This document shows positions 10,027 to 22,612 of a stretch of 64,000 nucleotides of DNA, one piece after another (position 1 is the first letter of the stretch; every line of letters starts with the position of its first letter). A program made the translations under genes and the position numbers. Source of the stretch: Pseudoalteromonas viridis (GTDB lineage Bacteria > Pseudomonadota > Gammaproteobacteria > Enterobacterales > Alteromonadaceae). The DNA is taken from NCBI RefSeq assembly GCF_017742995.1, contig NZ_CP072425.1, positions 744,001-808,000 of the forward strand, given 5' to 3'. Under the pieces are notes generated by a model. It worked only from the letters and a program-made list of their open reading frames with translations, ran no database searches and had not been told where the DNA came from.

Positions 10027-11091
10027 TTAAAGGTAACCATGCATCGGTAGGCTAAACACTGAACTTGCTAAACGTTCCGCAACCGGAAAGTCTCCTTCCT
10101 GATAACCCAACGCTTTAAATGCGGTTTGTTGATGCATACACGTACCATAGTAAACCATGGTCGGAATACCTTGTGCCTTATACTTCGCCATGTCTGCATC
10201 ACGCTCTGCTGACGTCAACGTGTATTGTGCCCAGGAGCTGACATACCCCTGTGGAACAACCGGCGTTTTGTACGTGTCTTTTAATTCTGCCGTGTACTTC
10301 TGCGCTGCTTTGTTGCGATTAATCAACTCTTGCGGGAAGGCCGCTAGCTTTTCAAGCAAGACTGCCGCCTGAATGGTATCCAGGCGTGAGTTCATGCCAA
10401 TACGTACGTTATCGTACTTATCTTTCCCTTTACCGTGTACACGATACGACCTTAACAGCGCGGCATAGTCATCGTTGTCTGTGAATAAGGCACCGCCATC
10501 ACCATAGCAGCCTAATGGCTTTGCCGGGAAGAAACTGGTTGTCGCAATATCACCGAATGACCCCGCACGCTGACCATTGATTTCACCACCAAAGCCTTGC
10601 GCCGCATCTTCAATGATTTTCAACCCATACTTGTCCGCGATTTGTCTCAGTGCAGGGTAATCTGCTGGTAAGCCAAACAGGTCCACCGCAATAATCGCCT
10701 TTGGCTGTAACTTACCTTCGGCCAGTGTGGCCTCAATGCGTTTTTCTAAGTCTGCCGGACAGATGTTGAAGGTGTCTTCATCCGAGTCAACAAAAACAGG
10801 GGTCGCCCCCTCGAACGCAATTGTTTCAGCTGTCGCGAAGAACGTAAAGGTAGGACAAAAAACCGCATCCCCTTCTTTAACATCTAACACCATCAACGCC
10901 AACGTCAGTGCATCTGTACCATTGGCACAGCTTATGGTGTGCTTCACGCCGACATAGTCTGATAACTGCTGCTCCAGCTCTTGCACTTCCGGACCCATGA
11001 TATAGTGACCATGGTCTAAAACCGCTTGAATTCGCGCGTCGATTTTGTCTTTTAAGTGCTGATATTGCGCTGCTAAATCTATAAATTGCAT
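10027..11091 (-). CDS. wbpE: WbpE-type UDP-sugar 3-aminotransferase, slightly short
   Basis: A 354-residue DegT-family aminotransferase starting MQFIDLAAQYQHLKDKI, close to the QFIDL start of WbpE. PLP-site segments are visible: ISCANGTDALTLALMVL, IIEDAAQGFGGE with the Asp, and TTSFFPAKPLGCYGDGGA with the Schiff-base Lys. WbpE transfers an amino group from glutamate to UDP-3-keto-GlcNAcA made by WbpB. It lies 20 bp after wbpD, in the order wbpB-wbpD-wbpE. The protein ends at SLPMHGYL, whereas related enzymes usually continue for a further helix. The C-terminal tail thus appears shortened by roughly 10-20 residues; activity is uncertain but likely, because the active site is complete. Confidence 0.86.
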   Translation of the reverse strand: MQFIDLAAQYQHLKDKIDARIQAVLDHGHYIMGPEVQELEQQLSDYVGVKHTISCANGTDALTLALMVLDVKEGDAVFCPTFTFFATAETIAFEGATPVFVDSDEDTFNICPADLEKRIEATLAEGKLQPKAIIAVDLFGLPADYPALRQIADKYGLKIIEDAAQGFGGEINGQRAGSFGDIATTSFFPAKPLGCYGDGGALFTDNDDYAALLRSYRVHGKGKDKYDNVRIGMNSRLDTIQAAVLLEKLAAFPQELINRNKAAQKYTAELKDTYKTPVVPQGYVSSWAQYTLTSAERDADMAKYKAQGIPTMVYYGTCMHQQTAFKALGYQEGDFPVAERLASSVFSLPMHGYL

Positions 11092-11111
11092 TTAATAATT
11101 ACTTCTACGAA

Positions 11112-11687
11112 TTATTTAATTGAAACAAAGCCATTTTCTAAATGATAGTGCTCGCCGGTGTGCTCACAGGTAGCAATGCCATTTCCATCCAGTGGCAAAT
11201 CGAGTTGTTCACCGTATTTGCTGATCCAGCCAATTTGTTTAGCAGGTACGCCAACCACCAGGGCAAAGGGTTTTACGTCTTTGTTTATCACCGCACCGGC
11301 CCCCACCAGGGAGTATTCACCAATGGTGACACCACACACCACCGTGCAGTTTGCCCCCAGTGTGGCACCGCGCTTAACAAGTGTATCGCGATACTCTGTT
11401 TTGCGTTCGATGAACGCACGCGGGTTATACACATTGGTAAACACCATGCTTGGGCCACAAAACACGTCGTCTTCCAGGTGCACATTGTCGTATACCGACA
11501 CGTTGTTTTGTACTTTGACGTTGTTACCTATCGTCACTTTGTTACCGATAAAAACGTTCTGACCTAAAGAGCAACCTTCACCGATTTGCGCGCCACCACA
11601 CACGTGCACAAAATGCCATACCCGTGTGTTCGCACCAATTTGCGCGCCGTCATCCACAATGGCGCTGTCGTGCACATGGTAACTCAT
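11112..11687 (-). CDS. wbpD: WbpD-type UDP-sugar 3-N-acetyltransferase
   Basis: A 191-residue left-handed beta-helix acetyltransferase. It starts [16 protein letters not shown], has regular hexapeptide repeats, and carries [20 protein letters not shown], a segment characteristic of WbpD/WlbB-like enzymes. It ends its helix at [20 protein letters not shown]. WbpD acetylates the 3-amino group of UDP-GlcNAc3NA made by WbpE, giving UDP-2,3-diacetamido-2,3-dideoxyglucuronate. It follows wbpB by 3 bp and precedes wbpE by 20 bp. A decayed second copy lies at about 20,885-21,163. Confidence 0.9.
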
Positions 11688-11690
11688 GAA

Positions 11691-12647
11691 TTAAAGTACC
11701 TTGCTTAAAAGTGGGTGCGCTTTCTCACCGGCTTCAACAACATCCTGAACGCGGATATCCTCAACCGTTTCAATGGCGATACGGTTTTCATCAATGCCAA
11801 AACCATTGCCGGCTAACACATTTTGGTAGCTCTGAGTATGCAAGTCGGTAAAACCACCAGAGAACTCCAGCTCTTCTGTGTTCTCACCATCATTAATGGT
11901 GATACTGCGGTAGGTCAGCTTTTCGCCTTTCACCGCGTTTTCTGGCAGGTTATTCGAATCAATAGATAAGAACCACTTTACGCGAGCACGCTCATATTCC
12001 AGATAGCCGCTTGCAGTTTTCTCGTCTCTGAAGTGCACTTCATTGCTTTTTAGTTCACCAAAGATGAAGTGAAGCATGTCGTAAAAATGCACGCCGATAT
12101 TGGTCGCGACACCGCCCGACTTATGGTCAAACCCTTTCCAGGATTTCATGTACCATTTACCGCGAGATGTCATGTAAGTTAAATCCACATCAAACACTTT
12201 ATCCGCAGGCGCTGCCGCCACTTTTTCTTTTAGCGCGATGATGGATGGGTGTAAACGTAACTGCAGGATTGAATTAACCTTGGCGCCGTATTTTTGCTCG
12301 TAGTCTTTCAGTATATCCATATCTTCTGAATGCAAAACCAATGGCTTTTCACAAATAACATCAATGCCATTTTTAAGGGCATATTTCATGTGCGGCGCAT
12401 GCAGATAATTAGGGCTGCAAATTGAAATGTAATCCAATTTATTACCCTGCAAAGCCTGATCTTCGACAAATGCAGTGAAGTCTTCAAACTCAGTGAAAAA
12501 CTCAGCCTCCGGGAAGTGGCTATCCATAATCCCCACAGAATCGTTGATATCCATCGCGGCAACCAGGTTGTTACCTGTGTCTTTAATCGCGCGAAGGTGA
12601 CGTGGTGCGATATAACCCGCTGCACCAATTAATGCAAAATTTTTCAT
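11691..12647 (-). CDS. wbpB: WbpB-type UDP-GlcNAcA 3-dehydrogenase
   Basis: A 318-residue Gfo/Idh/MocA-family oxidoreductase. The N-terminal NAD site is [18 protein letters not shown], and the family's EKPLVL motif ([13 protein letters not shown]) is near residue 100. [20 protein letters not shown] carries the conserved catalytic His region. WbpB oxidises the C-3 hydroxyl of UDP-GlcNAcA to a keto group for WbpE. The start is 16 bp from the stop of a decayed wbpA, so the ancestral order wbpA-wbpB-wbpD-wbpE is still readable. The intact wbpA now lies about 9 kb away at 21,329-22,612, where a decayed wbpB remnant follows it. Confidence 0.9.
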
Positions 12648-21163: not shown

Positions 21164-21170
21164 TCTCAGG

Positions 21171-21312
21171 TTAAAGCCCCTTCCCTGAAAGTGGGTGATT
21201 ACAACCACCGGCTTCGATAACCTGCTTCATTTTGATGTGTTCAACCGCTTCTATTGCAATACGACTCCCGTCGATGCAATCGATGGATGTAAACGTAACT
21301 ACAAAACTGTTC
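21171..21312 (-). pseudogene. wbpB: Decayed second copy of wbpB (remnant)
   Basis: Aligns with the end of intact wbpB (about 11,695-11,790): GAAAGTGGGTG, ACCACCGGCTTCGATAAC and TCAACCGCTTCTATTGC are all recognisable. It then jumps to the region around 12,245 (GGATGTAAACGTAACT). Most of the gene has been deleted. It lies directly behind intact wbpA, where the full wbpB would be expected. Confidence 0.8.
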
Positions 21313-21328
21313 GTAGCTAACCTGGAGC

Positions 21329-22612
21329 CTACAGCCTGATATCGGCTTCTGATGGCTTCAGTACATGTTTAACATCGTAAAGTACATGACTTTCTTTACC
21401 GAATGAGCGTAGCTTCTTTTCACCCATTTCTTTTAGTTCTGAATGATCAACGGCAAGCACGATACCATCGTATTTGCCCTCTTCTAATTCGTTGATAAGA
21501 TCAATACCGTACTCGTGTTTAACCTCTGCTGGGTTTGCCCAATCATCATAGACGTCAACAGACATATTGAAGTCTTTCAGCTCTTTTACTATGTCTATGA
21601 TTTTGGTATTGCGCACATCAGGGCAATCGCCTTTGAACGTAAAGCCAAGGATCAGTACCTTCGCTTCGTCAATATGAATTTTTTTACTAGCTAATTTTTT
21701 AACTAATTGGGTCGCAACGTATTCACCCATACCATCATTGATACGACGTCCAGCCAAAATAACTTCCGGGCGATAGCCTACTTCTTGCGCTTTATGTGTC
21801 AGGTAATAAGGATCGACGCTGATACAGTGGCCACCAACCAGCCCTGGCTTGAACTTTAGGAAGTTCCACTTCGTTCCCGCGGCATTGAGCACCTCTTCAG
21901 TATCGATACCCAGACGATTAAAGATCTTTGCAAACTCATTAATGATTGCAATATTTAAGTCCCGCTGAGTATTTTCAATTACTTTGGCTGCCTCAGCCAC
22001 TTTCAAAGAGCTCGCTTTATGCGTTCCGGCTTCGACAATAGAGCCATAAAGGGCGTCGACAAAGTCTGCTACTTCAGGTGTCGAACCAGATGTTATCTTA
22101 GTGATTTTAGTTAAGGTATTTACTTTGTCACCTGGATTGATCCGCTCAGGAGAGTAACCAGCATAAAAGTCGGTATTAAACTTCAGCCCCGATACTTTTT
22201 CGATCAATGGTAAACAAACTTCTTCGGTCGCCCCCGGGTAGACTGTTGACTCATAAATAACAACGTCCCCTTTTTTAATAAACGCCCCTAGCATTTCTGA
22301 AGCTTTTCTCAGCGGGGTTAAATCAGGCCTGTTACTTTCATCAATTGGTGTAGGCACTGTAACAATATAAACTGTACTCTGCGCCAGTTCAGACTTATCA
22401 TCAGAAAAACGTAAAGAAGCAGCGGCACTAAGCGCCTCATCTGACACTTCAAGTGTCGAATCATGTCCGTTGCGTAGCTCATTTACGCGGCTAGAATTAA
22501 TATCAAAGCCAAGTACATTTTCATATTTCTTTGATAATTCAACAGCTAAAGGTAGGCCAACATAGCCAAGACCAATTATTGCAATCTTAGGAGATTGATT
22601 AAAACTATTCAT
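21329..22612 (-). CDS. wbpA: UDP-N-acetylglucosamine 6-dehydrogenase, WbpA type
   Basis: A 427-residue UDP-glucose/GDP-mannose dehydrogenase-family protein that oxidises UDP-GlcNAc to UDP-GlcNAcA, the first step towards the diacetamido uronic acid. The NAD motif is [16 protein letters not shown]. The catalytic Cys is Cys263 in [15 protein letters not shown], and [16 protein letters not shown] and the C-terminal [15 protein letters not shown] match the WbpA/WecC group. It differs clearly from the plus-strand Ugd. Its natural partners wbpB, wbpD and wbpE survive only at 10-12.6 kb, because the copies beside it are decayed. The pathway is therefore split over two places but looks complete up to the diacetamido sugar. 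Confidence 0.92.

What the first reader, a model, noticed from the sequence alone, without database searches (positions are those of the whole stretch)
10027..22612. Reciprocally decayed duplicate wbpA-wbpB-wbpD cassettes flank an inserted glycan block
Copy 1 keeps wbpA intact (21,329-22,612), followed by remnants of wbpB (21,171-21,312) and wbpD (20,885-21,163). Copy 2 keeps wbpB, wbpD and wbpE intact (10,027-12,647), preceded by a remnant of wbpA (12,663-13,190). Both copies have the same orientation and gene order. Each gene survives exactly once, so together they still make one pathway. The simplest reading is a direct duplication, for example a single-crossover integration through wbp homology. 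It would have placed the 13.2-20.9 kb block (two glycosyltransferases, wzz, wzy, a WecG-type gene and ugd) inside an older wbp operon. Each cassette then lost what the other supplied. This could be a footprint of antigen switching caught midway. The remnants and their alignment are seen directly; the mechanism is inferred.
Basis: partly seen in the sequence, partly recalled or inferred. Interest (0 to 1): 0.85.

Follow-up and report, generated by a model that had tools for sequence, protein, structure and literature searches.

The report
Three sugar-gene sets, not two
A marine Pseudoalteromonas carries three copies, in different states of repair, of the genes for an unusual cell-surface sugar; a complete copy just outside the window means the two damaged ones inside it do not complement each other as first thought, and the region instead records repeated reshuffling between neighbouring O-antigen-type and capsule-type gene clusters.

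Summary
The sequence features are real: intact wbpA (21,329-22,612) followed by scars of wbpB and wbpD, and intact wbpB-D-E (10,027-12,647) preceded by a truncated, broken wbpA. But "each gene survives exactly once" is false. Running off the window's left edge lies a third, complete operon: wza-wzb-wzc-wbpA-wbpI-wbpB-wbpD-wbpE. Its wbpB-to-386-aa-gene part is a 9.16-kb, 99.3%-identical direct repeat of window 3,494-12,651. The genome thus has two intact wbpA and two intact wbpB/D/E.

Pseudoalteromonas relatives show a recurring frame: O-type block, ugd, wza-wzb-wzc, K block; wbpABDE occurs at three positions in it. The window's intact wbpA pairs with the O-block wbpA of P. rubra S2599 (support 100/100 and 99/99); the remnant pairs with this genome's K-operon wbpA (99/99). 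Intact wbpA plus remnant as one clade is rejected (p 0.0008). The 13.2-20.9 kb genes are O-block-type genes plus ugd, not an insert into a wbp operon.

Best reading: wbp sets of different age and position decayed separately, and a 9-kb cassette was later copied into the K operon. Such shuffling is known in kind; the near-identical cassette shared by adjacent loci is the notable part.

The parts
22613..23421 (-). decayed wzz (chain-length regulator) between wecA and wbpA, set alpha
   Evidence: blastn 76.4% over 852 nt to S2599 wzz region, E 6e-176; tblastn in broken pieces, E 2.8e-47
21329..22612 (-). alpha wbpA: intact UDP-GlcNAc 6-dehydrogenase (WbpA/TviB type), O-block lineage
   Evidence: ORF 427 aa; TviB model NF011729 591.2 bits, cut-off 592; 96% aa to S2599 O-block wbpA; clade 100/100 and 99/99
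21171..21306 (-). alpha wbpB scar (a short inner piece and the last ~94 nt of wbpB)
   Evidence: 0 of 300 shuffles reach the alignment score; tblastn 47% over 34 aa, E 4e-4 with the G004 wbpB as query
   Evidence: 0 of 300 shuffles reach the score; blastn E 9.5e-11; tblastn 55% over 42 aa
15634..20723 (-). O-block-type genes: two glycosyltransferases (19,644-20,723; 18,602-19,705), wzz-like (17,574-18,500), 387-aa protein without family match, wzy only by position (16,374-17,537), WecG-type (15,634-16,368)
   Evidence: NCBIfam/Pfam (wzz and WecG matches are below the curated cut-offs); homologues or the same kinds of gene in the O block of relatives
13762..14940 (+). ugd (UDP-glucose 6-dehydrogenase), turned against the operons as in S2599
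   Evidence: NF011631 639 bits, below its cut-off 757; opposite to wza in 2 of the 11 genomes with both genes in one stretch, the window's and S2599
13189..13231 (-). promoter-like sequence (TATAAT at 13,201-13,206) shared with the wza upstream region of S2599, fused to the wbpA remnant
   Evidence: 90.5% over 42 nt, E 1.6e-11; in the loci scanned (L054-L116 left out) found only in this genome and S2599
12663..13192 (-). beta wbpA remnant: about codon 252 to the end, one in-frame stop and one 1-nt deletion
   Evidence: 74.5% nt to alpha, 89% over 525 nt to gamma wbpA; pairs with gamma wbpA 99/99; alignment
10027..12647 (-). beta wbpB, wbpD, wbpE, intact
   Evidence: proteins 100% identical to the gamma copies at C1:736,490-739,110
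3494..12651 (-). beta copy of the 9.16-kb direct repeat: wbpB, wbpD, wbpE, 4,6-dehydratase-like, PseC-like aminotransferase, acetyltransferase, hisH, hisF2 (frameshifted), wbuX, 386-aa protein (no family match; taken as glycosyltransferase)
   Evidence: 99.3% over 9,159 nt to C1:729,956-739,114; 64 differences
2268..3530 (-). wzx flippase, intact; its first 7 codons (from the ATG) are left at the end of the gamma copy
   Evidence: Pfam Polysacc_synt; junction sequences; 66% aa homologue in the same place in G043
1327..2267 (.). spacer between wzx and wza with a relic of an IS5-type transposase gene
   Evidence: stop-free 74-aa piece matches IS5 family transposase NF033579, E 7e-18, and DDE_Tnp_1; repeated elsewhere in the genome; stops in all three frames
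199..1326 (-). wza, first gene of the intact gamma operon; wzb, wzc, wbpA, wbpI, wbpB, wbpD, wbpE follow at C1:744,185 down to 736,490, nearly all outside the window
   Evidence: NCBIfam; best PDB match of the wbpI gene is UDP-GlcNAc3NAcA 2-epimerase, E 9e-118

Best explanation
The window covers most of two neighbouring surface-polysaccharide loci, and three wbp sets sit at three positions that recur in the genus. Alpha is the 5' end of the O-type block: decayed wzz, intact wbpA, scars of wbpB and wbpD. Beta lies between ugd and wza: truncated wbpA, then intact wbpB-D-E, two further sugar-modification modules, a likely glycosyltransferase and wzx. Gamma is the K operon, mostly outside the window: wza-wzb-wzc-wbpA-wbpI-wbpB-wbpD-wbpE and more, intact. 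Alpha and beta are not the two halves of one recent duplication. Alpha lost wbpB/D/E (in S2599 the corresponding loss coexists with an intact K-operon set). Beta lost its wbpA 5' part at a joint that fuses a wza-type promoter sequence to the remnant. Later a 9.16-kb stretch, from wbpB to codon 7 of wzx, was copied from a beta-type arrangement into gamma (by tandem duplication plus deletion, or by recombination or insertion), and parts were probably homogenised afterwards. Shown: sequences, copy numbers, joints, trees. Inferred: order of events, direction of copying, and that the cell makes UDP-GlcNAc3NAcA/ManNAc3NAcA-type sugars for both polymers.
For: Third intact set and 99.3% repeat. WbpI identity: best PDB match UDP-2,3-diacetamido-2,3-dideoxy-glucuronic acid 2-epimerase E 9e-118, next kind 2e-85. 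Copying polarity: gamma ends with the 386-aa gene plus MIKRFLK of wzx and then unrelated DNA, whereas beta and G043 run on into wzx. At the other end gamma joins the wbpI stop to the wbpB start, while beta and S2599 have wbpA directly before wbpB. Trees and AU tests. S2599 has the alpha wbpA with a wbpE scar plus an intact gamma set. Alpha wbpA dN/dS window versus S2599 is 0.024/0.82 (NG86), dS like nagP (0.92) and wecA (0.70), as expected if it was inherited with its neighbours and kept under selection. G043 has a window-type cassette ending in wzx directly before wza. 64 beta/gamma differences, none in a 2.9-kb tract (0 of 20,000 random placements give such a gap).
Against: No genome lacking the gamma insert was found: outside the own genome the gamma wbpI gene has only partial DNA matches (68-74% over 327 to 466 nt, plus short ones; 16 of 108 genomes matched in all, own included), and the 419-aa transferase gene beyond the insert matched 1 of 108 at E <= 1e-40, the own genome. 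So the empty site cannot be shown. Of the 64 differing sites beta agrees with G043 at 25 and gamma at 24 (15 neither), so substitutions do not polarise the copies. Position does not track wbpA lineage cleanly: the G043 wbpA in front of its O/beta cassette is 96% aa identical over 229 residues to the window's gamma wbpA, and the two G048 copies pair with each other. The copying mechanism is unresolved. Sugar products are inferred from families alone.
Confidence: 0.75

Rival explanations
1. One reading: one wbp operon was duplicated (single crossover), a glycan block came to lie inside it, and each copy lost what the other supplied.
For: Two partial sets in one orientation; remnants align.
Against: A complete third set exists; alpha plus remnant as one clade rejected, p-AU 0.00077; the block holds genes of the kinds that form the O block in relatives; S2599 keeps alpha wbpA beside an intact gamma set.
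Confidence: 0.04
2. The gamma cassette arose by homologous replacement or gene conversion of a resident wbpB-D-E set in gamma, not by tandem duplication: gamma already had wbpA-wbpI-wbpB-D-E, and a beta-type cassette overwrote it from the wbpB start onward.
For: WbpI acts on the product of WbpB/E/D (PMC10622841); the identical stretch starts exactly where homology would start; zero differences over 2.9 kb and 26 of 64 differences in the 927 nt at the wzx end fit conversion tracts; G043 lacks the stretch from mid wbpA to the end of wbpB at four contig ends on three contigs, as if two near-identical copies were left out of that assembly.
Against: The left end falls inside wzx at codon 7 with no homology beyond, so at least one end was not homologous.
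Confidence: 0.35
3. Beta and gamma cassettes were imported separately from related donor strains, so their 99.3% identity reflects the donors rather than copying inside this genome.
For: K and O blocks differ widely between relatives; differences are spread evenly by polarity (25 versus 24 of 64).
Against: In the only other fetched stretch with this cassette, G043, it is 80-82% identical in DNA; the truncated wzx start in gamma matches the beta joint.
Confidence: 0.15
4. Assembly artefact: the 9.16-kb repeat was placed twice by mistake.
For: Long near-identical repeats are hard to assemble; reads could not be examined.
Against: 64 differences, different genes on both sides of each copy, two-contig genome at 99.99% completeness.
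Confidence: 0.03

Closest known systems
Pseudomonas aeruginosa Wbp pathway (WbpA, WbpB, WbpE, WbpD, WbpI) for UDP-ManNAc3NAcA; its WbpG/HisH/HisF amidotransferase set is recalled, from no call
   Same: All five enzyme families occur in the gamma operon; WbuX, HisH and HisF2 families follow. The five-enzyme pathway is described in PMC10622841 (passages seen).
   Different: Three sets at three positions in one region; among the three sets wbpI only in gamma; enzyme activities untested.
Vibrio parahaemolyticus capsule loci with multicopy genes made by duplication and recombination (PMC7829505, passages seen)
   Same: Sugar-pathway genes occur in two or three copies in one locus and are ascribed to duplication or recombination.
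   Different: In the passages seen these are single genes, e.g. wecB and wecC copies 72-74% identical; here a ten-gene cassette at 99.3% in two adjacent operons.
Vibrio cholerae NRT36S capsule genes inside the O-antigen region (PMC1847822, passages seen)
   Same: Capsule and O-antigen genes share one region and perhaps genes.
   Different: The word stem duplicat- does not occur in its text.
P. rubra S2599 and S2676 homologous region
   Same: Same flanks, same frame, K-operon wbpABDE; S2599 also has the alpha wbpA with a scar and the turned ugd.
   Different: In the stretches fetched: no beta set and no 9.16-kb repeat in either; no close alpha wbpA in S2676.

Membership tests
UDP-GlcNAc3NAcA / ManNAc3NAcA (Wbp) pathway | WbpA-type UDP-GlcNAc 6-dehydrogenase | tested here: met
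   TviB model NF011729: gamma 608.8 bits, alpha 591.2, cut-off 592, so alpha is just below it; nucleotide-sugar dehydrogenase TIGR03026 is well above cut-off for both
UDP-GlcNAc3NAcA / ManNAc3NAcA (Wbp) pathway | WbpB, WbpE and WbpD homologues | tested here: met
   PDB sequence search: WbpB E 1.8e-120, WbpE 5e-100, LPS acetyltransferase 3mqg 2e-100; no NCBIfam model reached its cut-off for them
UDP-GlcNAc3NAcA / ManNAc3NAcA (Wbp) pathway | WbpI-type 2-epimerase | tested here: met
   gamma only: E 9e-118 to UDP-GlcNAc3NAcA 2-epimerase
UDP-GlcNAc3NAcA / ManNAc3NAcA (Wbp) pathway | enzyme activity and sugar in the polymer | not testable with these tools
   Consistent only: the P. rubra type-strain O-polysaccharide contains di-N-acyl uronic acids (PMC3210612, passages); that is another strain
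Reciprocal gene loss after duplication | each gene intact exactly once in the genome | tested here: not met
   two intact wbpA and two intact wbpB; wbpD and wbpE also intact twice
Reciprocal gene loss after duplication | the two partial copies are each other's closest relatives | tested here: not met
   p-AU 0.00077 against alpha plus beta remnant
Wza-Wzb-Wzc capsule-type operon (gamma) | contiguous wza, wzb, wzc | tested here: met
   polysaccharide export subfamily NF011658 411 bits, cut-off 333; Wzc 780 of 1068 and Wzb 148 of 243 are below their equivalog cut-offs
Wza-Wzb-Wzc capsule-type operon (gamma) | a capsule is made | not testable with these tools
   sequence only

The most novel reading that the evidence does not exclude
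The wbp cassette works as a shared homology patch between neighbouring O-antigen and capsule loci: copies are kept near-identical by gene conversion, and crossover between the two 9.16-kb repeats, 17.5 kb apart, removes or amplifies wzx-wza-wzb-wzc-wbpA-wbpI, giving loss or change of capsule in one step and joint evolution of two surface polymers.
Probability: 0.15. Interest if true: 0.6.

Novelty: new member of a known kind. Interest (0 to 1): 0.35.

Why it matters
It corrects an attractive reading (complementary half-operons) that was produced by the edge of the window, and replaces it with a series of relics in one region: decayed O-block genes, a promoter-like sequence fused to a truncated gene, and a 9-kb cassette shared almost letter for letter by two adjacent loci. 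If the long repeats recombine, one strain could lose its export genes in a single step, and O-type and K-type polymers would change together; that can be tested in a marine bacterium.

Tried and rejected
Rejected or left open: (a) alpha and beta as two halves of one duplication (trees and AU tests). (b) A wbpE scar behind alpha wbpA: alignment no better than shuffles. (c) An empty gamma site in relatives: none found. (d) Deciding the copying direction by shared bases with G043: 25 versus 24 of 64, undecided. (e) The repeat beside ugd as cause of the rearrangement: it is a dispersed element, 61 match pieces in this genome, and in S2599 it lies on the other side of ugd. (f) A JUMPstart/ops element upstream of the operons: only the core motif (recalled) was scanned, in four sequences; 3 hits, none in an operon leader. 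(g) A first model in which gene conversion alone explains 99.3% identity beside an 87-89% identical wbpA remnant; not needed, since both wbpA copies lie outside the copied stretch, but conversion may still explain the zero-difference tract. (h) The branch asymmetry of gamma wbpA (0) versus remnant (0.39): in 71 differences gamma has the majority base at 49, the remnant at 16, neither at 6, with a third-position excess (39 of 71), so part of the divergence looks older than the decay. (i) Positions as clean clades of wbpA: not so except for the window/S2599 alpha pair.
Literature searches: (listings only, apart from the four papers whose passages I saw: PMC10622841, PMC7829505, PMC1847822, PMC3210612). 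No listed title or abstract start described a 9-kb sugar cassette duplicated between adjacent O and K loci in Pseudoalteromonas; the library holds open-licence papers only.

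
Full report
WHAT WAS CLAIMED. Two reciprocally decayed wbpA-wbpB-wbpD cassettes, each gene surviving once, produced by a direct duplication that placed a glycan block inside an older operon.

CHECK OF THE OBSERVATION. The remnant at 12,664-13,191 matches intact wbpA at 21,330-21,858 (74.5% over 530 nt, E 7e-95). 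The scar downstream of intact wbpA aligns with wbpB and wbpD beyond all of 300 shuffles, but not with wbpE. Family and PDB searches support the names. A wzz relic between wecA and wbpA was not mentioned.

WHAT LIES OUTSIDE THE WINDOW. The window is C1:744,001-808,000 of a two-contig, 5.55-Mb genome. Bases 728,001-748,000 hold an intact operon read in the same direction: wza (window 199-1,326), wzb, wzc, wbpA (740,197-741,480), a 2-epimerase (739,112-740,191), wbpB, wbpD, wbpE and more. The epimerase is best matched by the UDP-GlcNAc3NAcA 2-epimerase of solved structures (E 9e-118, against 2e-85 for the next kind), so I call it WbpI type. The stretch C1:729,956-739,114 is 99.3% identical to window 3,494-12,651. 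Of ten genes in it, nine are intact in both copies; hisF2 is frameshifted in the window copy. So the genome has two intact wbpA, one wbpA remnant, and two intact copies of wbpB, wbpD and wbpE. Whole-genome searches agree: two wbpB matches in G000 at E <= 0.001, two full wbpA matches at E <= 1e-120.

RELATIVES. The genus is Pseudoalteromonas by its nearest named records. Of 108 genomes of the genus searched (own included), 65 had a wbpB match at E <= 0.001, most of them weak. By recount of the listed rows, 15 genomes (own included) have wbpB at 86% or more, 10 at 60-63%, and G043 has only fragments at contig ends. wbpA at E <= 1e-120: 38 of 108, with two matches in G000, G054 (S2599) and G021, whose second copy is 64% identical. 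I fetched stretches around wbpB for 17 genomes besides the own one; eight of the ten genomes in the 60-63% group were not fetched. Those that reach far enough share a frame: nagP, mscS, an OPX-type gene, an O-type block, ugd, wza-wzb-wzc, a K block; in G050 and G059 ugd lies downstream in the K block instead. A wbpA-wbpB run follows wzc, directly or after an extra epimerase/dehydrogenase gene or pair, in G089, G093, G031, G071, S2599, S2676, G039, G050, G059 and G087; it lies in the O-type block in G028, G048, G004, G021 and, among named loci, P. flavipulchra and HM-SA03. In G089 no wbpD match was printed at this place and in G031 the wbpE is only 55% identical. G048 has the run in the O block and, on a contig that begins inside wbpA, a second time; the two stretches are 91% identical over 1,987 nt. 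G043 has wbpA broken near codon 234 and wbpB broken near codon 302 at contig ends, with two wbpA 5' parts and two wbpB 3' ends; this suggests, but does not prove, two near-identical copies of the missing stretch.

S2599 is the key relative. It has an O-block wbpA 96% identical to the window's alpha wbpA, followed by a wbpE scar, and also a fully intact wza-wzb-wzc-wbpA-wbpB-wbpD-wbpE. The scars differ: start and end of wbpE in S2599, end of wbpB and middle of wbpD in the window, so whether B/D/E were lost once or twice is open. Alpha wbpA has dN 0.024 and dS 0.82 between the two genomes (NG86), dS like nagP (0.92) and wecA (0.70). I infer that it came down with its neighbours and stayed under selection, although S2599 has another intact wbpA.

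TREES. In the 5' half, window alpha and S2599 alpha pair at 100/100; in the 3' half at 99/99, and gamma pairs with the remnant at 99/99 (19 rows each). Most other branches are unresolved, and position does not track lineage cleanly: the wbpA before the G043 O/beta cassette is 96% aa identical over 229 residues to the window's gamma wbpA, and the two G048 copies pair with each other in the 3' half (84/86). This fits exchange between positions within genomes.

JOINTS. (1) Gamma, left end: stop of the 386-aa gene, then the first seven codons of wzx, then unrelated DNA; beta continues into intact wzx, as does G043. Beta therefore has the older arrangement. (2) Gamma, right end: the wbpI stop touches the wbpB start; beta and S2599 have wbpA directly before wbpB. 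A 17.5-kb tandem duplication with a new wbpI/wbpB joint followed by a deletion would explain both; replacement of a resident set would too. (3) Beta wbpA remnant: up to 13,189 the sequence matches the region upstream of wza in S2599 (42 nt, 90.5%, with TATAAT), and wbpA begins at about 13,192. The simplest reading is a deletion that removed wza, wzb, wzc and the 5' part of wbpA from an operon arranged as in S2599. G043, whose similar cassette follows O-block genes without wza, leaves room for another route.

DIFFERENCES BETWEEN THE REPEATS. 64 in 9.16 kb: 26 in the 927 nt at the wzx end (binomial p 2e-10), none in a 2.9-kb tract covering wbpD and wbpE (0 of 20,000 random placements). Beta agrees with G043 at 25, gamma at 24, neither at 15. 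This fits later gene conversion, but unequal constraint along the cassette was not modelled.

FUNCTION. WbpA oxidises UDP-GlcNAc; WbpB, WbpE and WbpD lead on to UDP-GlcNAc3NAcA; WbpI epimerises it (PMC10622841, passages). WbuX/HisH/HisF2 families point to acetamidino groups (NCBIfam descriptions). The P. rubra type-strain O-polysaccharide contains di-N-acyl uronic acids and an acetamidino (acetimidoyl) group (PMC3210612, passages), in line with the gene content but from another strain. That alpha and gamma WbpA supply beta WbpB/D/E is inference.

VERDICT. Real relics, wrong reciprocity. Ordinary in kind (polysaccharide loci are mosaics), with one uncommon feature: a ten-gene cassette at 99.3% identity in two adjacent loci.

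Noticed in passing
window 29,268-29,477 and 14,948-15,109: Dispersed short repeat (about 210 nt full length, shorter versions common): 61 match pieces in this genome; in S2599 one lies on the other side of ugd, where the overlap of the alignments suggests a short target duplication.
   Followed up: partly
window 1,327-2,267; C1:723,738-724,103: IS5-type transposase relics between wzx and wza and near the far end of the gamma operon.
   Followed up: partly
window 13,762-14,940: ugd is turned against wza only here and in S2599, 2 of the 11 genomes that hold both genes in one stretch.
   Followed up: partly
window 6,140 (hisF2 of the beta cassette): A 1-nt difference in an A-run breaks hisF2 in beta while gamma is intact; it could be a real start of decay or a sequencing error.
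   Followed up: no
L138-L140 (G048) and L141, L142, L163 (G043): Contig ends fall inside wbpA or wbpB, suggesting repeated wbp cassettes in other species of the genus that draft assemblies hide.
   Followed up: partly
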